In this document: piece after piece, positions 7,058 to 17,054 of the stretch
Numbering within the stretch: position 1 is the stretch's first letter
Layout of the letters: each line of letters opens with the position of its first letter
Source of the DNA: Acidobacteriota bacterium
Lineage (GTDB): Bacteria > Acidobacteriota > Blastocatellia > UBA7656
Direction of reading: 5' to 3'
NCBI GenBank assembly: GCA_016201275.1
Contig: JACQDB010000124.1
Location: 1 to 40,177, forward strand
Length of the DNA: 40,177 nucleotides
Program-made: the position numbers and the translations under genes
The notes under the pieces: model-generated
Told to the model about the DNA's origin: nothing
The model's input: the letters and a program-made list of their open reading frames with translations, nothing else
The model's database searches: none

Positions 7058-9286
7058 ATGAAAATTGTACTGGTTAATGTCATCGAGTTTGAACCGATTC
7101 ACGAATTCCTGCACGGCAAAAAGCATAACCAATCTACCCAATATCCGCCGATAGGGTTATTGACGCTGGCGGCAGTGTTGGAAGCCAAAGGTTACGAAGT
7201 CGAGGTCGTTGACTTTGGCAATCTGATTTTGAACGCGGCGCTGAAATGCGACGATCACTTGCCCACCCACGCCGCGCAGTATTTACAGAGTCGGCAAGGT
7301 GATGTGGTGGGTTTCTCTTCGCGTTGCGACAACTACCTGCACACCTTACGCATAGCCGAAGAGTTTCATTTGCTGGAACCGCTTGTGCCAATCGTCTTTG
7401 GCGGACCGCAGGCGACCATAACCGACGTAGCCACTATCGAGCAGTTTGGCTTTGTCAATTGCGTCGTGCGGCACGAAGCCGAATACTCGTTTCCGGCGCT
7501 TCTGGAAGCTCTTGATGATGGCAGGCCGTTTAACGATATTCCCGGCGTGGTCTTTCGCCAGCACGGCAAAGTGGTCAAAACTCCTGACCCCTCGTTGATC
7601 TTAGACCTGGATCAAATTCCCATGCCGTCCTTCAAATATTTCCCCATAGACACCCTCAACACCATGCCTGTAGAGGTTGGGCGCGGCTGTCCATTCGGCT
7701 GCACGTTTTGTGTCACCAATCGCTACTTTAATCGGCGCTACCGTTTGAAGAGCGCGGATCGCATCATTGATGAAGTCATCTGGCTACAGGAAAACTACGG
7801 CTTTCAACGCTACACCTTCATACACGATATGCTGACCGCCAGCCGTCAACTGGTGATGCAACTGTGTCGGCGCATGAAAGAACGCGAGGTAAAGATTGAA
7901 TGGTCTTGCAGCGCCAGAACCGATTGCGTGGACCGCGAGTTACTGGAAACCATGCGCGCTGTCGGTTGTCGGGATGTTTATTTTGGCATCGAAACCGGGT
8001 CGCACAGAATGCAGAAAGTGGTCAACAAAAACCTGAAACTGGAGGGTGTCTTTCCGGTGATTGATCTGTGCGCCGAGTTGGGCATAGCAGCGACGACTTC
8101 GTTTATTACAGGCTTCCCAGAAGAACAGGAAGAAGATGTCGAAGCGACGTTGAGAATGATGTTGCAGTTATCGCCGAAAGTGCCGAATGTGCAGTTGCAC
8201 CTATACAGTCCAACCCCCGGCACGCCGCTCAATGATAAATTTTCCGACCGCTTGGTGTTCACCGGCTACATCAGCGACTTCGGTTTCTCTACCACCTTTG
8301 GCGACGACGAGCAGCAGATGATTACCCAACATCCGGACATCTTCACCAACTATTTTCAGGTCGAGCCGCTGCATCTGGATTTTGCTTCACTGCGTGGGCT
8401 TGATGCGTTTGGTTATACGCTGCAAGCCTTCAAACATTTCTTCTTTTACTTGATGCACGAAGCGCAAGCGCCCAGCCTGTTTGAAGTATGGCAGCGAGTG
8501 CGGCGCTGGGCAGATGAGCAGCAGGTTGCCTGGAGCATTGCAACCATGTTGGCGAACGGTTTGACGGACGAGATGGCGGCGTTCATTCAACAGATGCTGA
8601 ATCAAGAGCCGCAGCTTTCGCCGGTTCTCACCGAGGCGTTTAATTTTGATCGCGCTTTGCTCCGTCTGGGAACCGCGACCAATCTGCTGGCAGACGATTA
8701 CAAGAGCGACTTGCAGGCTTTGCGTCGAAGTATGTTGTCATTGAAAACCGATAAGCAAGCCGTACTGCGCTTGCGAACCCCTGTGGTGCTTTCGCAGACG
8801 CGCTGCCCTCTCGCCAAAATGATGGAGGCGGTCAATACCCGCAAGCTCATACCGCTGACGATCAACGAGAAGCCGTTAGACATAGGCATCTATGCTGTCA
8901 AAGACCGCAGCGGTTCGCATGGTTTCACCTTTGCCGTTTTAGAAGTCAACGAGATTTATCAGGCGATTTTGGCGCATTGCGACAAGGCAATTTCGCAGGA
9001 CGATTTACTGATCGAGGTGAGGGCCAGTCTGCGGCAGCAGGGGATCGAGCCACCTCATTGCGAGTTGTTGTGCGAACGCGCCCTTGAACGATTGGTGCGC
9101 CTGCAATTGCTGTCGGTGCGAATGCAAGGCGAGACTTCAACCACCGATGCACTAACCGATTTATCAACCGATTCGCAGCGCCCAGCCTTGATTCGTATGC
9201 AGCCGTTGGCGATGCCTTTACCGGCTTTGCCGCCAGTGGCTTTCCGCGACCAGCACGCCGAAGCCAATCGTCTGGCGGCAAGGTAG
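7058..9286 (+). CDS. Cobalamin-binding radical SAM enzyme with PqqD-like C-terminus
   Basis: A 742-residue protein. Residues 1-150 match a B12-binding Rossmann domain (PPIGLLTLAAVLEAKGYEVE). The radical SAM core follows with C211-PFG-C215-TF-C218 and later GIETGS and TGFPEE strands. In this class, cobalamin usually supports methyl transfer to unactivated carbons or other radical rearrangements. Residues about 608-690 look like a PqqD-type winged helix (EVNEIYQAILAHCDKAIS, then two helices ending in LVRLQLLSV), the usual RiPP leader-recognition fold. ATG at 7058 follows GAAGGAA. It is the first gene of the cluster, 72 bases before a pseudo-radical-SAM gene. Cobalamin dependence and a peptide substrate are inferred; the radical SAM call is certain. 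Confidence 0.88.
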   Translation: MKIVLVNVIEFEPIHEFLHGKKHNQSTQYPPIGLLTLAAVLEAKGYEVEVVDFGNLILNAALKCDDHLPTHAAQYLQSRQGDVVGFSSRCDNYLHTLRIAEEFHLLEPLVPIVFGGPQATITDVATIEQFGFVNCVVRHEAEYSFPALLEALDDGRPFNDIPGVVFRQHGKVVKTPDPSLILDLDQIPMPSFKYFPIDTLNTMPVEVGRGCPFGCTFCVTNRYFNRRYRLKSADRIIDEVIWLQENYGFQRYTFIHDMLTASRQLVMQLCRRMKEREVKIEWSCSARTDCVDRELLETMRAVGCRDVYFGIETGSHRMQKVVNKNLKLEGVFPVIDLCAELGIAATTSFITGFPEEQEEDVEATLRMMLQLSPKVPNVQLHLYSPTPGTPLNDKFSDRLVFTGYISDFGFSTTFGDDEQQMITQHPDIFTNYFQVEPLHLDFASLRGLDAFGYTLQAFKHFFFYLMHEAQAPSLFEVWQRVRRWADEQQVAWSIATMLANGLTDEMAAFIQQMLNQEPQLSPVLTEAFNFDRALLRLGTATNLLADDYKSDLQALRRSMLSLKTDKQAVLRLRTPVVLSQTRCPLAKMMEAVNTRKLIPLTINEKPLDIGIYAVKDRSGSHGFTFAVLEVNEIYQAILAHCDKAISQDDLLIEVRASLRQQGIEPPHCELLCERALERLVRLQLLSVRMQGETSTTDALTDLSTDSQRPALIRMQPLAMPLPALPPVAFRDQHAEANRLAAR

Positions 9287-9358
9287 CGTCAGGCTTGACC
9301 ATCGCGCTGTGGTTGGTGGGCGGAGCCTTGACCACCAAAAAACTCTTACGAGGTAGCG

Positions 9359-10612
9359 ATGAAAAGACCAGGAAACTTACGCATCAGTAGCTACATTAGC
9401 AATTTTCCTTTGCCGGGAGAGCGCTTCGTGTGTTCCGTGCATGGCTATTCTGGCGCGGTTGATATTTTTCACAACACTCTCGCCGAAGCCTTGGAGAAGG
9501 GCGATTTTCAAGCCTGTTTGAAAACCAGCGAGGTTGAACAGATGCTGACCCAAAGAGGCTATCTGACGACGCGCACGGCTGCCGAAGAGACGCAGTTTAT
9601 TTCGCAGGTCAATGAATTGTACTGGAACAAACAGCCGTTTGTTACGGAGTTTGCGCTGACGTTCAAACGCCCGTCCGCCACTGCGGAAAACCGCCTCAAG
9701 GCTCCGGGTTTTATTGATAATCTGCTGCTCGCTTTGAATGAACTGCGCGGCATCAATGCCGGATGTCTGCTGGAAATGGATCTGCGCGAACTCGATGCCG
9801 ATCAATTAGAAGTCATCGAACAGCTTTTCTCGTTAGCCAAAAATTGGGACTTCAATATTCACCTGATGATTAGCGACGCGCAACTTCAAGAGCTTGCCAA
9901 ATTCATACGGCAGGAATTGGTATTGAAGTTGAGTGTGTTCATCGCCCAGCCCGACGCGCTGTGGAGCCGTCCCAGAAGCGCCGAGCAAGCGATGGATTAT
10001 CCTTTCGATTGCCTGCTCGAAATCATAGATAAAGAGGTGCAGGTCGAATGCTTCATCAACGCGGACGACGCCAGTGATGAAACGCTGGGCGATTTTCTGA
10101 GCCATCTGCAGCGCTTACGCCAGCGCATCCAAACCGCTAATGATGCCCAGTTGATTTTGATTCCGCTGACTTCGCAAAACGGCAATCGGCAAGCGCGTAT
10201 GCTGGAGGTGTGGGCTGGCGTCATCCCTTTGCGCGAGGATGAGTTGGCGGATTTTCGCCAACTGGAAACTCATATGTGGTCTAAGCGTATGGTGCGATTT
10301 CGCCCTTGCTTTGCGGTCAGCAATCGCCGCTACGAAGCCTTTTCCAGTGGCGAAATTGATTTGGTGACGGACTTCGGGCGCAACCGCAAAGCCATCGGGC
10401 AGGTCTTTGCAGACCACTATGAACTGGCGTCAACCGATGACGAACCCGCGCCGTCCAAACACGCCTTGCAAGACTTACCGCAAGAGTGCCTGACCTGCCG
10501 ACTCTCTTTGTTGTGCGGCGGCAATTGCAATGTGTGGGACGCCAGTATTGGCGAGCATTTCAAACAGAAGGCGGCACGCTTGTTGACCATACCGTTTCTC
10601 AATCAGCTGTAA
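9359..10612 (+). CDS. Pseudo-radical-SAM protein with SPASM-like C-terminus
   Basis: A 417-residue protein resembling the radical SAM/SPASM enzyme encoded just downstream. Both start with a short beta domain containing an H-G-[VY]-[ST]-G-A motif and a RGYLT helix near residue 65-70. Where the paralogue has its CxxxCxxC cluster site, this protein has no cysteine. The C-terminus keeps C377-x2-C380-x5-C386-x3-C390, the same spacing as in the paralogue. It therefore probably cannot bind the SAM-cleaving cluster but may hold an auxiliary cluster or act as a scaffold or leader-binding partner. Pseudo-rSAM partners are known from GG-Bacteroidales peptide systems (from memory). GAGGT lies before the ATG. 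An independent degenerate family is the alternative. Confidence 0.75.
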   Translation: MKRPGNLRISSYISNFPLPGERFVCSVHGYSGAVDIFHNTLAEALEKGDFQACLKTSEVEQMLTQRGYLTTRTAAEETQFISQVNELYWNKQPFVTEFALTFKRPSATAENRLKAPGFIDNLLLALNELRGINAGCLLEMDLRELDADQLEVIEQLFSLAKNWDFNIHLMISDAQLQELAKFIRQELVLKLSVFIAQPDALWSRPRSAEQAMDYPFDCLLEIIDKEVQVECFINADDASDETLGDFLSHLQRLRQRIQTANDAQLILIPLTSQNGNRQARMLEVWAGVIPLREDELADFRQLETHMWSKRMVRFRPCFAVSNRRYEAFSSGEIDLVTDFGRNRKAIGQVFADHYELASTDDEPAPSKHALQDLPQECLTCRLSLLCGGNCNVWDASIGEHFKQKAARLLTIPFLNQL

Positions 10613-10650
10613 TTTTTTTTGAGCAGGAAACCGTTTCGCAAGGAGGAATT

Positions 10651-12099
10651 ATGGAGAGCTTGAGAAGAAGCCGATACACGCTGATGTCTGACCTAGCCAT
10701 TGGAGGCCAGCGTCTTCTCTTGCATGGCGTGACCGGCGCTATGGATGAAGTCGCCGACCAAGTTGGGGCATTTCTCAAGGACACCTCCTTGAGTGTTGAA
10801 GAAGGCGTACAAAAGTACAACATTTCTCAGGAGACTTTGCGCGTGATGGAGGAGCGCGGCTATCTGACCAAATTGGCAGAAGATCAAGAACGTCAGCGGG
10901 TCGGAAAATACATCACCAAGTTGCACACCCTCAAACTGGAAAATTGCGCTTCCTTCATGATTGTCGTCACTTACTTGTGCAACCTGCGTTGTCATTACTG
11001 TTTTCAAAAACCGTTGGTCGAAGCCGATGGCAAACGCCTCTTCAGCGACCTGATTAGCGTGGAAATGGTAGATGCGGCTTTTGCCGCTATGGCGCAACTG
11101 ATTAAGCAAAAGCGCGCCCGCCATAATCTTGAACTATTCGGCGGCGAGCCTTTGCTGGCACGCAATCGCCCGGTGGTGCAATACATCATAGAGCAAGCCC
11201 GCGAGCGCAATTTCAGCGTCACCGCAACCTCGAATTCGACCGACCTGCATCATTACGAAGACCTGTTGGGCCCCGGCGGCATTGAAAAAATTCAAGTGAC
11301 CATAGATGGCGCGCCGGAAATGCATGACAAGATTCGCATATACCCCAGCGGCAAAGGCTCGTTCGAGAGCATCAGCGATAATATCAGTCGGGCGCTGGAT
11401 CGCGGCGTGGTCATCAATCTGCGAATCAATATCGCCAAATATAATATTCAACAACTGCCCACCATCGTCGAACATATACAGCAGAAGGGTTGGGCGAAAT
11501 ACGAAAACTTTGCCGCTGGCCTGGCAGAGGTGCATTACATAGGCATACAGGATGATCGTTCAAAAGAGTTAAGCCATCTGGAATTGATTGACAGCGTGGC
11601 GGCGCTCGACGCGCCGTACTTCACGAAAAAGGCTTTGGTGCGCGGCGTTTTTGGCAGGCATTTCAACTATTTTCCGGGACAACCTCCGGCTCCGAAATTC
11701 GATACCTGTTTCTGCAATGCGATGCAGGGGCATTATGTTTTCGATCCTTATGGCAACGTCTATACCTGCACGGAAGACGTAGGCTTTGAGCGAGCGCGGG
11801 TCGGCACGTATTACCCCGGTGCGTTGCAGTTTGATGCCTTGCGGCTCAAGGGCTGGCACGAGCGCACGGTGGCGAATCTGCCAGACTGTCCGAGTTGCGA
11901 GTATTTGCAGGTCTGTGGCGGCGGCTGCGCTCGCAATGCTTTGCTCGACACGGGCGATGCTTGGACTTCTTACTGCACGGATTTCAAAGCGTATTTCCAG
12001 AAAGTGCTGACCTTGCTTTATGAAGATTATAAAAGCAGTGATGGCCCAGACCCTGCGGTGCTGGGACTCTCGTCAATGGTGACGGCTTGTAAATCCTAA
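10651..12099 (+). CDS. Radical SAM/SPASM peptide maturase
   Basis: A 482-residue enzyme. The start at 10651 is chosen because AGGAGG lies 4 bases before it; a longer reading would overlap the preceding gene. Residues 1-95 form the N-terminal domain of SPASM peptide maturases (HGVTGAMDE, EERGYLT). The catalytic cluster is C110-NLR-C114-HY-C117, followed by the ELFGGEPLL motif. The SPASM half has CFC and CTED sites and C413-x2-C416-x5-C422-x3-C426, expected to bind auxiliary 4Fe-4S clusters. Such enzymes install thioether, C-C or C-O crosslinks on ribosomal peptides. It sits 38 bases after its catalytically dead paralogue and upstream of the precursor genes, suggesting a two-subunit maturase. 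Confidence 0.93.
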   Translation: MESLRRSRYTLMSDLAIGGQRLLLHGVTGAMDEVADQVGAFLKDTSLSVEEGVQKYNISQETLRVMEERGYLTKLAEDQERQRVGKYITKLHTLKLENCASFMIVVTYLCNLRCHYCFQKPLVEADGKRLFSDLISVEMVDAAFAAMAQLIKQKRARHNLELFGGEPLLARNRPVVQYIIEQARERNFSVTATSNSTDLHHYEDLLGPGGIEKIQVTIDGAPEMHDKIRIYPSGKGSFESISDNISRALDRGVVINLRINIAKYNIQQLPTIVEHIQQKGWAKYENFAAGLAEVHYIGIQDDRSKELSHLELIDSVAALDAPYFTKKALVRGVFGRHFNYFPGQPPAPKFDTCFCNAMQGHYVFDPYGNVYTCTEDVGFERARVGTYYPGALQFDALRLKGWHERTVANLPDCPSCEYLQVCGGGCARNALLDTGDAWTSYCTDFKAYFQKVLTLLYEDYKSSDGPDPAVLGLSSMVTACKS

Positions 12100-12117
12100 G
12101 AAGCTGTTTGAACTGTG

Positions 12118-12222
12118 GTAGCGCCAGCGTCTCGCTGGCTGTAGCGGTGGCATCTTGCCGCCGTTGGGTGTTACAAGGAGTGCAAGATGCACTCCCCACA
12201 GCCGCCAAGCGGGCGGCGCTAC
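12118..12222. repeat. REP-like palindromic element, copy 1
   Basis: Bounded by GTAGCGCC (12118-12125) and its complement GGCGCTAC (12215-12222), with further internal stems (CAGC/GCTG and GCAAGATG segments). Its first 27 bases, from 12116, match exactly those at 17003-17029. It fills part of the 341-bp gap between the SPASM enzyme and the precursor genes. This looks like a dispersed REP-type repeat rather than a gene. Confidence 0.7.
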
Positions 12223-12440
12223 ATTGCAAAAAGCTCAAGCGAGCGCCTGGCCGACACTTTTGCGGAGAACCAGGGTTCGGCTTCGCGCCCCCATCATACC
12301 CGCAGAGCGACGGCGTATGACTGGGCAAAAGTTCTCCGGGCAACCGGAGCGCTGCCTACGCAGCACCTCTGAGAAGACCGTAAACAATACGGGACTCAGT
12401 TTCAACCTCAGTCGCGTGAATCTTAGAAAGGAGGAAAATT
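12223..12440. promoter_or_regulatory. Upstream region of the precursor genes
   Basis: No gene is seen here. A CTCCGG-GCAA-CCGGAG hairpin lies at 12334-12349, and the region ends in AAAGGAGG, an excellent ribosome site for the first precursor at 12441. This 5' region is where a dedicated precursor promoter would be expected, but I could not assign -35/-10 boxes. Confidence 0.4.
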
Positions 12441-12569
12441 ATGGCGGAAAAAGATGTTCAAATCATGCCGATTAACTCAAACATCCTGACAGGCATCACC
12501 ATTGATGAGTTGGAAGATCGCTTGGAGATGCAGTTGCTCGGTTTGTTCGATGTGCTGGCGCTGTCGCAG
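12428..12569 (+). repeat. 142-bp direct repeat, copy 1 (RBS plus leader)
   Basis: Identical base for base to 12726-12867. It contains the AAGGAGGAAAATT ribosome site and codons 1-43 of the precursor. Identity stops exactly at the CAG codon 43, where leader ends and core begins. Zero divergence means recent duplication, gene conversion or an assembly artefact. Confidence 0.95.
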
Positions 12570-12674
12570 CCAAACGGTTTAGCGGAGAATATTTTCGCCT
12601 ACACCGCTTTTCAAGAGGTTCCCAGACCATCTGTGTTAGAGGGTGAGGGCTGGCAACAGGCTCTTATCCTCTAA
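12441..12674 (+). CDS. RiPP precursor peptide, copy 1
   Basis: A 77-residue peptide with a strong AAGGAGG site. Residues 1-43 form an acidic, leucine-rich leader (ITIDELEDRLEMQLLGLFDV), an amphipathic helix suited to binding a PqqD-like domain. Residues 44-77 form the putative core. It is cysteine-free and contains F52, Y54, F57, R62 and W71 and ends in Leu-Ile-Leu. The absence of Cys argues against thioether crosslinks; aromatic-centred C-C or C-O links, epimerisation, methylation or Arg-to-ornithine conversion remain possible. The position between radical SAM genes and a PqqD/M50 gene, and the duplicated leader with a different core, are typical of RiPP precursors. I do not recognise the leader as a named family. 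The leader/core boundary is inferred from the repeat boundary. Confidence 0.8.
   Translation: MAEKDVQIMPINSNILTGITIDELEDRLEMQLLGLFDVLALSQPNGLAENIFAYTAFQEVPRPSVLEGEGWQQALIL
12636..12674 (+). promoter_or_regulatory. 15-bp RNA hairpin ending the first precursor
   Basis: Bases 12636-12650 pair with 12660-12674 over 15 consecutive positions (twelve Watson-Crick, three G-U) around a 9-base loop. The TAA stop is the base of the stem. There is no U tract, so it is more likely an mRNA stabiliser or attenuator that adjusts precursor-to-enzyme ratio than a terminator. Confidence 0.6.
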
Positions 12675-12676
12675 AC

Positions 12677-12725
12677 CAGAGATGTCGGCTTGCGCGCATC
12701 TCTGACATCAACCTGCTGCGGCAGG
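12677..12725 (+). promoter_or_regulatory. Two hairpins before the second precursor
   Basis: CAGAGATG (12677-12684) pairs with CATCTCTG (12697-12704). CCTGC-TGCG-GCAGG (12712-12725) then ends right at the ribosome site of the second copy. Together with the preceding hairpin, the 64-base spacer is almost fully structured, which could limit read-through or translation of the second copy. Confidence 0.5.
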
Positions 12726-12867
12726 AAGGAGGAAAATTATGGCGGAAAAAGATGTTCAAATCATGCCGATTAACTCAAACATCCTGACAGGCATCACCAT
12801 TGATGAGTTGGAAGATCGCTTGGAGATGCAGTTGCTCGGTTTGTTCGATGTGCTGGCGCTGTCGCAG
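12726..12867 (+). repeat. 142-bp direct repeat, copy 2 (RBS plus leader)
   Basis: Exact second copy of 12428-12569, offset 298 bp. Its right boundary lies inside a small palindrome (12859-12879), which may mark the recombination point. Confidence 0.95.
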
Positions 12868-12879
12868 ATGGAGCGACAG
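12859..12879 (+). repeat. Palindrome across the leader/core junction
   Basis: CTGTCGC (12859-12865) and GCGACAG (12873-12879) form a 7-bp stem with a 7-base loop. The junction between duplicated leader and unique core DNA (12867/12868) lies in the loop, so this palindrome may have promoted the rearrangement that produced the frame change. Confidence 0.5.
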
Positions 12880-12890
12880 TTTCAACGACC

Positions 12891-12921
12891 TGGATGAGGG
12901 GATTGCTGAACCCCTCATCCA
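12891..12921 (+). promoter_or_regulatory. Perfect 11-bp hairpin with 9-base loop
   Basis: TGGATGAGGGG (12891-12901) and CCCCTCATCCA (12911-12921) are perfectly complementary. The in-frame TGA of the short reading lies in the left arm. There is no T tract right after it (a run of T occurs only about 25 bases later), so attenuation or mRNA processing between precursor and M50 gene is more likely than full termination. Confidence 0.6.
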
Positions 12922-12996
12922 GCGTTGCGGTTGGGGATTCGGAAAACTTTTTTGGGATGAAAACGGTCATCCTGAGTCTGCCAATGGGGAGTTGGA

Positions 12997-14358
12997 ATGA
13001 GCATAGACCAACTGATGCTATCGTTGCCGGAAGGCTGTTCGCTGTGGCGCATTGATACCAGCTTTGTCGAAACCCAATGGTTGTTGGTGACGCCGAACAA
13101 TCGCAAATTTCAGGTCTCTGCCAAAGCCAGTGATGTGATTTCGGAAATCCTCGACGAGCGCAAATCGCTTGCCGATCTTGCCAATACGCTGTCGGCGAAA
13201 TGGCAGGTTCCGGTCATGTCGGAAGATGTGTTGACCATCATTGAATCGGCTTACTGGCCGCAAGATTTGTTGAGAAAATCAACGCCCTGGGAATCCGAAG
13301 CAGTGTTGGAAGCGTCCATTGCAGAGCGCACAAGCAAATCTCTATTCGGAGATTTTTTTATACGCTTCACGGTACTCCCGGAGGCGGTTGTCCGCCGCAT
13401 AGCCGCACACTTGACCGGACTTTACCATCACGGCATTGCCCTGTTGTTGCTCGTCGCCATTGTCGGCGTGCATTTTTTGCTATTCCGTTATTTGGCCGCG
13501 CAGCCTTCTTGGGCGGCAACCTTGAGCTTGTCGCCTTCGCAATATGTAGCGGCCTTTGGCCTGATGGTCGGCAGCGTGCTGTTTCACGAATTGGGTCACG
13601 CAACGGCTGCCGCTGCCTTTGGGGTTCAGCCGGGAGCCATTGGCTGCGGCATCTATTTTATTTACCCGGCATTTTATACCGAGTTGGGTTTTGCCTGGTT
13701 ATTGCCGCGAGGCAAGCGCATGGTGGTTGATGTAGGCGGCTTCTACTTTCAACTGCTCACCACGCTGCCGCTTTATCTGGCCTTTTTCCTGAGCGGCAGC
13801 CGCGTTACTGTACTGGTTATCTTGTCTATAGATTTTCTGATCGGCTTTTCGCTGATCCCATTTTTCAAGTTTGATGGTTACTGGTTACTAGCCGATTTAT
13901 TGGGCATACCGAATCTGCAAAAGCACGCTATGGAATTGCTCGGCAGTCCGCAAAAGATTGTTCGCAATAAATTTTTCACCACCAAAAAGGGCTTGCAGTT
14001 GCCGCGCTGGTTGTCGTTGTCGTTGTTGGTTTATGGCGCGCTTTTTCTGCTCTTTCAAATCGGCATTGCCTTGTTGATTTTCAAAAATGGTCCGGCCTTT
14101 ATTTTTGCTGCGCCGGTAAAATTTTATACCTTAGCGCAGGAATTGTTTGCGGAGGTGGCTGCCGGACAACTTATGCTTGCCGCCCAACAAGGCATACGAA
14201 TCCTGATGTTGCTGGTCACTACACTGGCACTGATTTTGATATTCAAAAGTTACCTCAGACTTTTTCTTTATTGGGGCAAGAAGTATGGCAATCGCTTATG
14301 GCGTGCGAGCGCAGGCGTAAGCGCATCGGCAGTTTCTGAAGGGAGAAATCACCAATGA
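12997..14358 (+). CDS. M50-family membrane metalloprotease with PqqD-like N-terminus
   Basis: A 453-residue integral membrane protein. Residues 1-95 resemble a PqqD-type winged helix (RKFQVSAKASDVISEIL, then a LADLANTL helix), a RiPP leader-binding module. Several membrane segments follow. One contains the zinc motif H197-E-L-G-H201, and a FDGYWLLADLLGIPN segment with D293 supplies the likely third ligand, as in site-2-protease relatives found in RiPP clusters. The probable job is cleavage of the leader at the membrane, possibly coupled to release. The ATG overlaps the +1-frame stop of the second precursor core (ATGA), and its own stop overlaps the next gene the same way. A purely transport role cannot be excluded. 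Confidence 0.85.
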   Translation: MSIDQLMLSLPEGCSLWRIDTSFVETQWLLVTPNNRKFQVSAKASDVISEILDERKSLADLANTLSAKWQVPVMSEDVLTIIESAYWPQDLLRKSTPWESEAVLEASIAERTSKSLFGDFFIRFTVLPEAVVRRIAAHLTGLYHHGIALLLLVAIVGVHFLLFRYLAAQPSWAATLSLSPSQYVAAFGLMVGSVLFHELGHATAAAAFGVQPGAIGCGIYFIYPAFYTELGFAWLLPRGKRMVVDVGGFYFQLLTTLPLYLAFFLSGSRVTVLVILSIDFLIGFSLIPFFKFDGYWLLADLLGIPNLQKHAMELLGSPQKIVRNKFFTTKKGLQLPRWLSLSLLVYGALFLLFQIGIALLIFKNGPAFIFAAPVKFYTLAQELFAEVAAGQLMLAAQQGIRILMLLVTTLALILIFKSYLRLFLYWGKKYGNRLWRASAGVSASAVSEGRNHQ

Positions 14359-15473
14359 ATTATACCTACACCAAAACCGAATTTGTGGAATTTTACCAGC
14401 AAATAGGCATTGAAATTGGTCGCCTATGCAATGCCCGATGCGAGCATTGCATCACCTATTCCGGCCCCAAGAATAAAGAGAAGATGGAGCCGACCATGTT
14501 GCGGCGCATCTTGAAAGAGGCAGGCTCATTGGGCTTGCCGCACGTCGAAATTACCGGCGGCGAACCCTTTCTCTTTCTCGATGAGTTGGAGGAAATCATC
14601 GCGCTGGCAAAAAGCTATGGGATGCGAACCGGCATCACTACCAATAGCTCTTGGGCGACCAAGCATGAAAGGGCTGTGAAGATTCTGATGCGCCTGAAAG
14701 CTGCCGGGCTGGTGCGCTTGCGTTTCAGCATAGACCAATATCATTTGAATTACATACCGTTGGAACGAGTCGAAACGGCGGTCAAAGCGGCGGCAGAAGT
14801 TGGCATCTATCCGCTGATTGAAGCGGCGGTGGGGCGCAAAGACTATCGCGCCTACGAAGCGGTGCATCGCTTGAAGGCGCTGGCCGTGGAATTGAAGATG
14901 TGTGAATTGCTGCCCTTTGGCAGAGCCGCCGAATTTGCCCCTGAAACTTTTTTCAGCGGCTCGTTTTATCAAGTGGCGCATACGCCTTGTCCTACGGCTG
15001 GGGTTCCGGTCGTCGAAAACGATGGGCGCGTGCTGTTGTGCTGCACCTATCCGGTGGCGCAAGACCCCAACGATATGGAAAGCCCCTTTGTGTTGGGCAG
15101 CACCAAAGAGGAATCCTTAGCCGATATTCTAGCTCGGCATCTCTACAACCCGCTGTTGCGAGTTCTGCGTTATGAAGGGCCGGGCGGTTTGCTGCGGGTT
15201 TTGGAAGAGGGCTATGGCAAGAAACAATATAAACCCAGAGAGCTTTATCCTGGCAGCATCTGCACGCTGTGTGCAGACATGATGGATCATGTGAATCTCA
15301 GAAAACTCTGGCACGAGACGGTTGCCCAGCACGATATGACCGCGTGGTTTACGCCGCCGGTTGATATGGAGCATCGCCCCGTCGAACAAGTCAGGATGGC
15401 AAACGCGCAGAGCAAATCGCGCAGCCTGCCCATCGTCACCTTGAGTTGCGGCGATTCGCACCCGCACCAATGA
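14355..15473 (+). CDS. Radical SAM enzyme with SPASM/twitch-like C-terminus
   Basis: A 372-residue enzyme with C25-NAR-C29-EH-C32, then VEITGGEPFLF as the SAM-contacting GGE motif. C-terminal cysteines (CPTAG, LLCCTYP, CTLC) suggest a SPASM or twitch auxiliary cluster. It lacks the N-terminal domain of the enzyme at 10651 and is closer in size to single-domain peptide epimerases or crosslinking enzymes, though the reaction cannot be told from sequence. ATG overlaps the M50 stop (ATGA), and its own TGA overlaps the start chosen for the next gene, so the three are translationally coupled. Last radical SAM gene of the cluster. Confidence 0.9.
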   Translation: MNYTYTKTEFVEFYQQIGIEIGRLCNARCEHCITYSGPKNKEKMEPTMLRRILKEAGSLGLPHVEITGGEPFLFLDELEEIIALAKSYGMRTGITTNSSWATKHERAVKILMRLKAAGLVRLRFSIDQYHLNYIPLERVETAVKAAAEVGIYPLIEAAVGRKDYRAYEAVHRLKALAVELKMCELLPFGRAAEFAPETFFSGSFYQVAHTPCPTAGVPVVENDGRVLLCCTYPVAQDPNDMESPFVLGSTKEESLADILARHLYNPLLRVLRYEGPGGLLRVLEEGYGKKQYKPRELYPGSICTLCADMMDHVNLRKLWHETVAQHDMTAWFTPPVDMEHRPVEQVRMANAQSKSRSLPIVTLSCGDSHPHQ

Positions 15474-16933
15474 AGCAACGGTTGAGGAGAAATGCGGAAC
15501 AGGCAAACGTCATGGAGACTTTAATTTTTGCCGAACACTCATCGGTGCTGCCTGTGTGGAAGCAGCGCGACCTACGCCAACGAACGCTGGTTTATCTGGA
15601 CGCGCATCTGGACTTGAAGCAGATCAGCGACCTTCGTTTGCAGCGACTACGCAACTGCCAAACGGCTGAGGAAATGGCGCAGTTGGAAAAGCCACATTTT
15701 CTAGTCACAGACGAAGGCTACAGTTTTAGCATTGAAGATTTTTTATACCCTGCCCACCGGCTCGGTTTCATAGAGCGCTTGATCTGGGTATGTCCGGGCG
15801 AACAAGTCCCAGACCTTGCTACGGTTCTCAAACGCGCTTTGCAATTTTTAGAGGGTGTACCGCTGGAAGATTTGCAAACCTTGAAACGCCACGGCGAAGT
15901 TCTGGAAGCCAAGCTCTTCGGCTTGCCTGTGGTCATCGCTTCGTATCAATACCTGAAGCATCTGCAACTGCCGCCCGACAGTTTGATAGACATAGATATT
16001 GATTACTTTATTTCAACCGCTACCGACCGCCCCTGGGTGAACCCGCAAAAAGTTTTTCAAGCCTTACAAGAGTTAGCGCTGCGCTCGGAATTGGTGACCC
16101 TGACGCGCTCGGTCAGCAGTGGCTTCACGCCTCTGCGTTACAGTTTTATTGCCGATTATCTGGCCGCCTTGTTTCGCGGAGATGAGCGCCAGGCAACGCA
16201 TTTTGCGCGCTTGTACGAACTCGATGAACAAGCGCAAAGAGGCGAACTGGCGACAGCCCTGCAAGGTTGTCTGAGCGAAGCCGAACAGTTTGCCGAGTGT
16301 CCAGCGACTTACTATCTGGCGAGTTTGTGCGAAGCCACAGAGGAGCGCCAAGCGGCGGCGCGCAATCGCGCTGTGGCGCTTTGTGCCAGCTATCGTCGGA
16401 GTGTGTTACGGTCGGCTTGCGGCGTTATCAATCGCACCAGAAAATTCGAGCTTGCTAAACTCGTAGCGTTAGAGAACCGTCTGCAACAAGAGGAAAGCAC
16501 AGCGGCGGACGAAGCCGCTTTGACCGATTTGATTATGGGAATGCTGTGCAGTCATCTGGGACTATTGGGCAAAACGCTGGGCTATCATTTCCGTTATAAG
16601 AAGGCCGCCGGACGACACGCCAGATTAAATGCCGCGCTAGGATTGCTGTTAAATGAACAAGGTCAAGCGCGCCGCGCCTTGCCGTTTTTCCGCGCCGCTT
16701 TGTCAGAAGACCAGACCAGACCGCGAGCCTATCTGCACTTGGGTATGCTTTATCTCCAACAGAAAAATTACCAAGCGGCTTTAGAAAATCTTTTGCCAGC
16801 CAGCCAATTGCTACCGGCGTTTCGTGAGCCTGTGCGAATGCTGGCGCACCTGTATGAACGAATCGGCGACCGCGAACAGTATCGCTTCATGCTCAAACGC
16901 TATCAGGAAATGAACCGCATCATTGCCACCTGA
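15470..16933 (+). CDS. UPF0489 (arginase-fold) protein with TPR tail
   Basis: A 487-residue protein. Residues 15-240 match UPF0489: FAEHSSVLPVWKQ, then the metal-binding pair D44-A-H-L-D48 and D174-I-D176-I-D178, the pattern of the ureohydrolase/arginase fold. Residues about 370-480 carry three TPR-like helical pairs. From memory, peptide arginases that turn arginine into ornithine in proteusin RiPPs (OspR type) belong near this family; each predicted core here has exactly one Arg. The start at 15470 makes the same ATGA overlap as the two junctions upstream; ATG 15512, at the beginning of the conserved domain, is the alternative. The peptide-arginase role is inference; the UPF0489 call rests on the two acidic motifs. 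Confidence 0.72.
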   Translation: MKQRLRRNAEQANVMETLIFAEHSSVLPVWKQRDLRQRTLVYLDAHLDLKQISDLRLQRLRNCQTAEEMAQLEKPHFLVTDEGYSFSIEDFLYPAHRLGFIERLIWVCPGEQVPDLATVLKRALQFLEGVPLEDLQTLKRHGEVLEAKLFGLPVVIASYQYLKHLQLPPDSLIDIDIDYFISTATDRPWVNPQKVFQALQELALRSELVTLTRSVSSGFTPLRYSFIADYLAALFRGDERQATHFARLYELDEQAQRGELATALQGCLSEAEQFAECPATYYLASLCEATEERQAAARNRAVALCASYRRSVLRSACGVINRTRKFELAKLVALENRLQQEESTAADEAALTDLIMGMLCSHLGLLGKTLGYHFRYKKAAGRHARLNAALGLLLNEQGQARRALPFFRAALSEDQTRPRAYLHLGMLYLQQKNYQAALENLLPASQLLPAFREPVRMLAHLYERIGDREQYRFMLKRYQEMNRIIAT

Positions 16934-17004
16934 TGCGGCGCAGATCATTGCCGTTTTCAAGAACGATACGTTGAGAGGGTGATGGGAAAATAAAAAAAAG
17001 GTTG

Positions 17005-17054
17005 GTAGCGCCAGCGTCTCGCTGGCTGTCGTGAAGGCAAGATGGCGGCGCTAC
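17005..17054. repeat. REP-like palindromic element, copy 2
   Basis: GTAGCGCC (17005-17012) and GGCGCTAC (17047-17054) bound a 50-bp element. With flanking bases, 17003-17029 matches 12116-12142 exactly and in the same orientation. The two copies bracket the precursor-M50-rSAM-UPF0489 block. Confidence 0.7.

What the first reader, a model, noticed from the sequence alone, without database searches (positions are those of the whole stretch)
7058..16933. Unfamiliar RiPP-type cluster with three radical SAM enzymes, a pseudo-rSAM and a UPF0489 protein
The set combines a B12-type radical SAM with a PqqD-like tail, an inactive rSAM paralogue, an active SPASM enzyme, tandem leader-duplicated precursors, a PqqD-M50 membrane protease, another radical SAM and a UPF0489/TPR protein. 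Each part has RiPP precedents, but I do not recognise the combination or the leader. The product would be a heavily modified peptide not based on thioethers.
Basis: partly seen in the sequence, partly recalled or inferred. Interest (0 to 1): 0.9.

Follow-up and report, generated by a model that had tools for sequence, protein, structure and literature searches.

The report
Ornithine-forming radical-SAM RiPP gene cluster
This stretch encodes a complete, uncharacterised factory for a small modified peptide, with three radical-SAM enzymes, a degenerate radical-SAM helper, an arginase that probably turns arginine into ornithine, and a membrane protease, all apparently guided by a peptide leader that no searched database lists; it is a new combination of known enzyme types rather than a new kind of system.

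Summary
Window 7058-16933 encodes a B12-type radical SAM enzyme (rSAM), a degenerate rSAM/SPASM paralogue, an active rSAM/SPASM enzyme, two tandem precursors with identical 43-aa leaders, an M50 protease, a YydG-like rSAM and a UPF0489-TPR protein. The UPF0489 protein is now assignable: a profile of it and 10 relatives finds the peptide arginase OspR (8brp) at E=1.8e-15, and all six Mn ligands are invariant. It should convert Arg to ornithine. The third rSAM is closest to the peptide epimerase YydG and keeps its Cys motifs. The cluster recurs, rearranged and at 23-43% protein identity, in one genome of another genus (L019), so precursor-enzyme linkage is conserved. The leader was found in 3 genomes among all 162 held for the class plus a 396-genome phylum sample, and matches no Pfam or NCBIfam model. 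Biphenomycin clusters pair a UPF0489-TPR arginase with a B12-rSAM; landornamide pairs an epimerase with an arginase. No paper found describes all of these with this leader. Best reading: an orphan RiPP cluster, new variant of a known kind, whose Cys-free product should carry ornithine, probably D-residues and a B12-rSAM modification. No product or activity has been shown.

The parts
7058..9286 (+). B12-binding radical SAM enzyme (742 aa), ApyD-like
   Evidence: PF02310 E 1.2e-12, PF04055 E 8e-24; best NCBIfam ApyD E 2.7e-120, 403 bits, cut-off 750; CxxxCxxC at GRGCPFGCTFC; 40% identical to L019 7057-9195
9359..10612 (+). degenerate rSAM/SPASM paralogue (pseudo-rSAM, 417 aa)
   Evidence: no Pfam hit; hhalign to the SPASM family E 1.2e-16; no CxxxCxxC, keeps Cx2Cx5Cx3C; homologue in L019 2768-4138
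10651..12099 (+). active radical SAM/SPASM maturase (482 aa) with an N-terminal domain shared with the pseudo-rSAM (possible leader-binding domain)
   Evidence: PF04055 E 5.8e-11; geopeptide/TIGR04463/PapB-like maturases E 3e-37 to 2e-33, all below cut-off; 35% identical over nearly full length to L077 8508-9956; N-terminal domains of B and C families align at E 9e-18
12441..12674 (+). precursor 1 (77 aa): leader 1-43, core PNGLAENIFAYTAFQEVPRPSVLEGEGWQQALIL, no Cys, one Arg
   Evidence: leader shared with L019, L014 and L077; ribosome-binding site AAGGAGG
12677..12704 (+). hairpin after precursor 1
   Evidence: RNA fold of 12672-12725 z -3.8
12739..12897 (+). precursor 2 (52 aa): identical leader, short core MERQFQRPG, no Cys, two Arg
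   Evidence: 143-nt identical copy of leader and ribosome-binding site; length and 3' hairpin match the 51-aa L019 precursor
12889..12922 (+). strong hairpin straddling the stop of precursor 2; an alternative frame stays open through here to 13000
   Evidence: fold z -4.4, 1 of 200 shuffles as good; alternative-frame codon score about equal to precursor 1 core
12997..14358 (+). membrane M50-type metalloprotease (453 aa), HELGH and KFDGYW, possible PqqD-like N-terminus
   Evidence: daptide intramembrane protease E 7e-29, YydH/LiaK family E 1e-11; motifs conserved in L019 and L014
14355..15473 (+). YydG-like radical SAM enzyme (372 aa), likely peptide epimerase
   Evidence: TIGR04078 E 8e-27, below cut-off; YydG structures 8ai1/8ai6 E about 2e-17 over residues 15-312; CNARCEHC, C212, C229-C230 and C303/C306 conserved in L019
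15470..16933 (+). UPF0489-TPR peptide arginase (487 aa)
   Evidence: profile of 11 homologues hits OspR 8brp E 1.8e-15; invariant H, DxHxD, DxD metal ligands; TPR C-terminus

Best explanation
A leader-guided RiPP cluster. Two short precursors with a shared 43-residue leader (centred on ELEDRLEMQ) are made in the cytoplasm. The leader is recognised by small N-terminal domains on the SPASM enzyme and on the pseudo-rSAM, which probably acts as a non-catalytic leader-binding or electron-transfer partner (inferred). The SPASM rSAM makes a bond in the Cys-free core, the B12-rSAM methylates or cross-links a residue (type unknown), the YydG-like rSAM epimerises one or more residues to D (inferred from homology), and the UPF0489-TPR arginase hydrolyses core Arg to ornithine (strongly inferred). 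The membrane M50 protease then removes the leader, as its YydH-like relatives are thought to do. Shown by sequence: gene content, motifs, leader conservation, conservation of the set in a relative. Inferred: all chemistry, order of steps, product and its bioactivity.
For: Gene content and motifs. Six-gene set conserved in L019 of another genus: pseudo-rSAM, precursor, M50, YydG-like, B12-rSAM, arginase-TPR. Leader found beside homologous SPASM and M50 genes in L014 and L077. Arginase: only significant PDB hit is OspR, E 1.8e-15, with all six Mn ligands invariant and motifs as published (PMC12703449; PbsE His10/Asp31/His33/Asp35/Asp165/Asp167, PMC12257519). YydG: E 2e-17 with Cys residues aligned. 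Cores of L019 (EIREFREFVIKAV) and precursor 2 (MERQFQRPG) are rich in Arg and Phe, as an arginase needs Arg.
Against: No product or activity is shown. Each of the enzymes with a named nearest NCBIfam family falls below that family's cut-off. Precursor 1 has a single core Arg. Only two clusters of this exact type were found, and the active SPASM is absent from L019. No dedicated exporter lies inside the cluster.
Confidence: 0.72

Rival explanations
1. A biphenomycin-like pathway: B12-rSAM cross-links two Phe-derived rings flanking an Arg that the UPF0489-TPR arginase turns into Orn, giving a small biaryl ring.
For: Biphenomycin clusters pair a TPR-containing UPF0489 arginase with a B12-rSAM acting on an FRF motif (PMC12257519, PMC12707348); L019 core has FREF and precursor 2 has RQFQR.
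Against: No MNIO gene among the cluster genes scanned, no FHAFRF motif in any precursor, and the B12-rSAM is nearest to ApyD, a Tyr C-beta methyltransferase (PMC10635010).
Confidence: 0.15
2. A thioether (ranthipeptide or sactipeptide) pathway like the Cys-rich sister clusters L014 and L077, with accessory enzymes added.
For: SPASM enzyme is 35% identical to the L077 enzyme next to Cys-rich precursors and related to PapB and Cys-rich maturases.
Against: No Cys in either in-frame window precursor or in the L019 precursor.
Confidence: 0.06
3. A degraded or transitional cluster: precursor 2 is a frameshifted remnant (alternative frame WSDSFNDLDEG...NGELE, open to the ATGA overlap with M50), and the locus may no longer make its full product.
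For: Alternative frame is open for 43 codons with codon scores like the precursor 1 core and overlaps the M50 start; leaders are 100% identical with wholly different cores, a sign of very recent recombination.
Against: A strong hairpin straddles the in-frame stop (z -4.4), the L019 precursor has the same length and a hairpin after its stop, and all enzyme frames are intact.
Confidence: 0.07

Closest known systems
Biphenomycin / pbs cluster (PMC12257519, PMC12707348)
   Same: UPF0489-TPR arginase plus B12-rSAM acting on one RiPP precursor
   Different: no MNIO, no FHAFRF motif; adds a YydG-like rSAM, SPASM rSAM, pseudo-rSAM and M50 protease; different leader
Landornamide (OspR) and other peptide-arginase RiPPs (PMC12703449)
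   Same: peptide arginase of UPF0489 type; landornamide also combines epimerisation with Orn formation (epimerase part from background knowledge)
   Different: proteusin (NHLP) or DD(I/V)LF precursors; window precursors match neither; TPR fusion here
Epipeptide YydFGHIJ system (PMC7026026)
   Same: YydG-family rSAM with an M50-type membrane protease and a short precursor
   Different: no YydF-like precursor; extra B12-rSAM, SPASM, pseudo-rSAM and arginase; no ABC transporter in the cluster
Aminopyruvatide cluster, ApyD (PMC10635010)
   Same: B12-rSAM of the same broad subfamily (E 2.7e-120, sub-threshold)
   Different: no P450, MNIO or methyltransferase gene among the cluster genes
Sister loci L014 (G005) and L077 (G065), no matching family in the libraries searched
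   Same: same leader motif, SPASM rSAM and M50 protease
   Different: Cys-rich cores, squalene-cyclase-like protein and (L014) an MGT-type glycosyltransferase; no arginase, epimerase or B12-rSAM alongside

Membership tests
Peptide arginase (UPF0489, PF12640) | six Mn ligands in H, DxHxD and DIDxD motifs | tested here: met
   invariant H10, D31, H33, D35, D161, D163 in 11 sequences including the window protein
Peptide arginase (UPF0489, PF12640) | sequence homology to OspR | tested here: met
   profile hits 8brp, E 1.8e-15; the single window protein reaches PF12640 only at E 0.0011, below cut-off
Peptide arginase (UPF0489, PF12640) | Arg in the core of the cognate precursor | tested here: met
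   one Arg in precursor 1 core, two in precursor 2 core and two in the L019 core
Peptide arginase (UPF0489, PF12640) | Arg-to-Orn activity on the precursor | not testable with these tools
   needs co-expression and mass spectrometry
Epipeptide (YydG epimerase) system | YydG homologue with rSAM motif and second-half Cys residues, including the CC aligned to the YydG H-donor region | tested here: met
   which residue is the H donor is from background knowledge
Epipeptide (YydG epimerase) system | passes the curated TIGR04078 cut-off | tested here: not met
   94.5 bits against a cut-off of 300
Biphenomycin class | MNIO gene and FHAFRF-type precursor | tested here: not met
   no MNIO among the scanned cluster genes; no such motif in the precursors
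DD(I/V)LF orphan RiPP family (FlmA/OhkA) | C-terminal DD(I/V)LF in the precursor | tested here: not met
   absent from window and L019 precursor C-termini (definition PMC12703449)
Proteusin / Nif11 / SCIFF precursors | match to NHLP, Nif11 or SCIFF leader models | tested here: not met
   no Pfam hit at E<=1, no NCBIfam hit at E<=5
Aminopyruvatide ApyD equivalog | score above 750 bits | tested here: not met
   402.7 bits
Daptide or YydH/LiaK M50 protease | HExxH and DG motif in a multi-pass membrane protein; curated cut-off | tested here: inconclusive
   motifs present, scores 101 and 45 bits under cut-offs 300 and 225
Ranthipeptide / sactipeptide | Cys donors in the core | tested here: not met
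   no Cys in either in-frame precursor

The most novel reading that the evidence does not exclude
A separate RiPP class defined by the ELE(D/E)RLEMQ leader, in which a pseudo-rSAM serves as a dedicated leader-binding partner, and a B12-rSAM, a YydG-type epimerase and a UPF0489-TPR arginase jointly turn a Cys-free Phe/Arg core into a D-residue, ornithine-containing and possibly cross-linked peptide without an MNIO.
Probability: 0.2. Interest if true: 0.75.

Novelty: new variant of a known kind. Interest (0 to 1): 0.5.

Why it matters
If the chemistry is as predicted, one precursor would receive epimerisation, ornithine formation, a B12-rSAM modification and a SPASM-rSAM modification, a set not found together in the papers searched. 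It would add a new leader-recognition system, a test case for what pseudo-rSAM proteins do, and a possible source of cationic D-residue peptides. UPF0489-TPR proteins also occur as stand-alone genes in this phylum, so characterising one here would help annotate them.

Tried and rejected
AlphaFold2 from single sequences of the arginase-TPR and the pseudo-rSAM gave pLDDT 38-40, so no fold search was run. The one genome-contig scan with the B12-rSAM returned only unrelated B12-rSAMs, so relatives carry no organism names. Phylum-wide hits to the arginase profile are mostly stand-alone UPF0489-TPR proteins or plain TPR proteins, not this cluster. Class-wide best B12-rSAM relatives (L062-L067) lie in other contexts. 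Phylum YydG relatives (L087-L091) lack the arginase, M50 and leader, though L090 has a distant B12-rSAM. A PqqD-like tail on the B12-rSAM was not detected by profile comparison or Pfam. Plasmid searches gave no arginase match and only distant B12-rSAMs. Treating the cluster as a biphenomycin or DD(I/V)LF member was rejected on defining motifs.

Full report
What is there. The window holds, on the + strand, an uninterrupted set: B12-rSAM 7058-9286, pseudo-rSAM 9359-10612, SPASM rSAM 10651-12099, precursors 12441-12674 and 12739-12897, M50 protease 12997-14358, YydG-like rSAM 14355-15473, UPF0489-TPR 15470-16933. The last three genes overlap by 4 nt each. The upstream neighbour is a long ORF on the other strand and the next gene downstream is an M23 peptidase; neither has an evident RiPP role.

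Precursors. The two leaders are identical over about 143 nt from the ribosome-binding site through codon 43, after which the cores share nothing. Neither in-frame precursor has a Cys. Both are followed by stable hairpins (z -3.8 and -4.4), and so is the L019 precursor (17-bp stem, z -2.7), but not those of L014 or L077. For precursor 2 another frame remains open to 13000 with coding-like codon scores, so its core is not certain; the near-equal length of the L019 precursor (51 against 52 aa) favours the short form.

Conservation. The own genome has one such cluster. In G005 (same family, other genus) contig C251 (L019) carries pseudo-rSAM, precursor, M50, YydG-like, B12-rSAM and arginase-TPR in that order, at 23, 43, 32, 33, 40 and 29% identity; it has no second SPASM enzyme, so the pseudo-rSAM does not need that partner there, at least not inside the cluster. 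A leader profile found only G000 and G005 among all 162 genomes held for the class, and in a 396-genome phylum sample one more, G065, with no other in G065's class. Two loci, L014 (G005 C196) and L077 (G065 C35), have leader, SPASM and M50 but Cys-rich cores and a squalene-cyclase-like gene. Thus a leader family with at least two product branches exists; the window has enzymes of both.

Arginase. PF12640 scores the window protein only weakly, but a profile of 11 homologues finds OspR as the sole significant PDB sequence (E 1.8e-15), and the six metal ligands named in PMC12703449 and PMC12257519 are invariant. TPR-containing UPF0489 arginases are the form reported in biphenomycin clusters.

Radical SAM enzymes. 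The third rSAM is nearest to YydG, sub-threshold, with its Cys residues aligned. The B12-rSAM is nearest to ApyD, which makes beta-methyltyrosine (PMC10635010), also sub-threshold. The SPASM enzyme resembles several maturases with none above cut-off. The pseudo-rSAM is a degenerate SPASM paralogue.

Comparison with the known. B12-rSAM + UPF0489-TPR arginase is published for biphenomycins, with an MNIO and an FRF core; the motif and the MNIO are not found here. The DD(I/V)LF family defined in PMC12703449 has a C-terminal motif absent here. Searches of the literature for arginase-epimerase-rSAM combinations and for RiPPs from Acidobacteriota (a guess at the phylum that no tool confirmed) gave no matching cluster; that library lacks most subscription papers.

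Verdict. Ordinary in principle, unusual in combination: a new leader family carrying a known toolkit. Interest 0.5. The chemistry is inferred throughout; the simplest decisive test is precursor plus arginase in E. coli.

Noticed in passing
12116-12142 and 17003-17029: A 27-bp identical direct repeat, found only these two times in the 6.84-Mb genome, flanks the block precursors-M50-epimerase-arginase. Related copies are dispersed, some in inverted pairs, in a few other genera of the class, so the block may have been gained together with a REP-like element.
   Followed up: partly
L014 4234-11896 and L077 8508-15268: Two sister loci in distant genomes join a Cys-rich RiPP precursor, SPASM rSAM and M50 protease to a squalene-cyclase-like protein; L014 also has an MGT-type glycosyltransferase at 14751-16100.
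   Followed up: partly
L047 8384-17083: Another locus (G163) has a UPF0489-TPR gene whose ORF runs on into a PqqD-like stretch, next to several radical SAM genes: a possible separate ornithine RiPP cluster.
   Followed up: no
L039-L046: UPF0489-TPR proteins also occur elsewhere in the phylum, some with lipoprotein-like N-termini and without evident RiPP genes alongside.
   Followed up: no
12677-12704 and 12889-12922: Stable RNA hairpins follow each precursor; neither is followed by a clear U run, so they may stabilise or attenuate transcripts rather than terminate them.
   Followed up: partly
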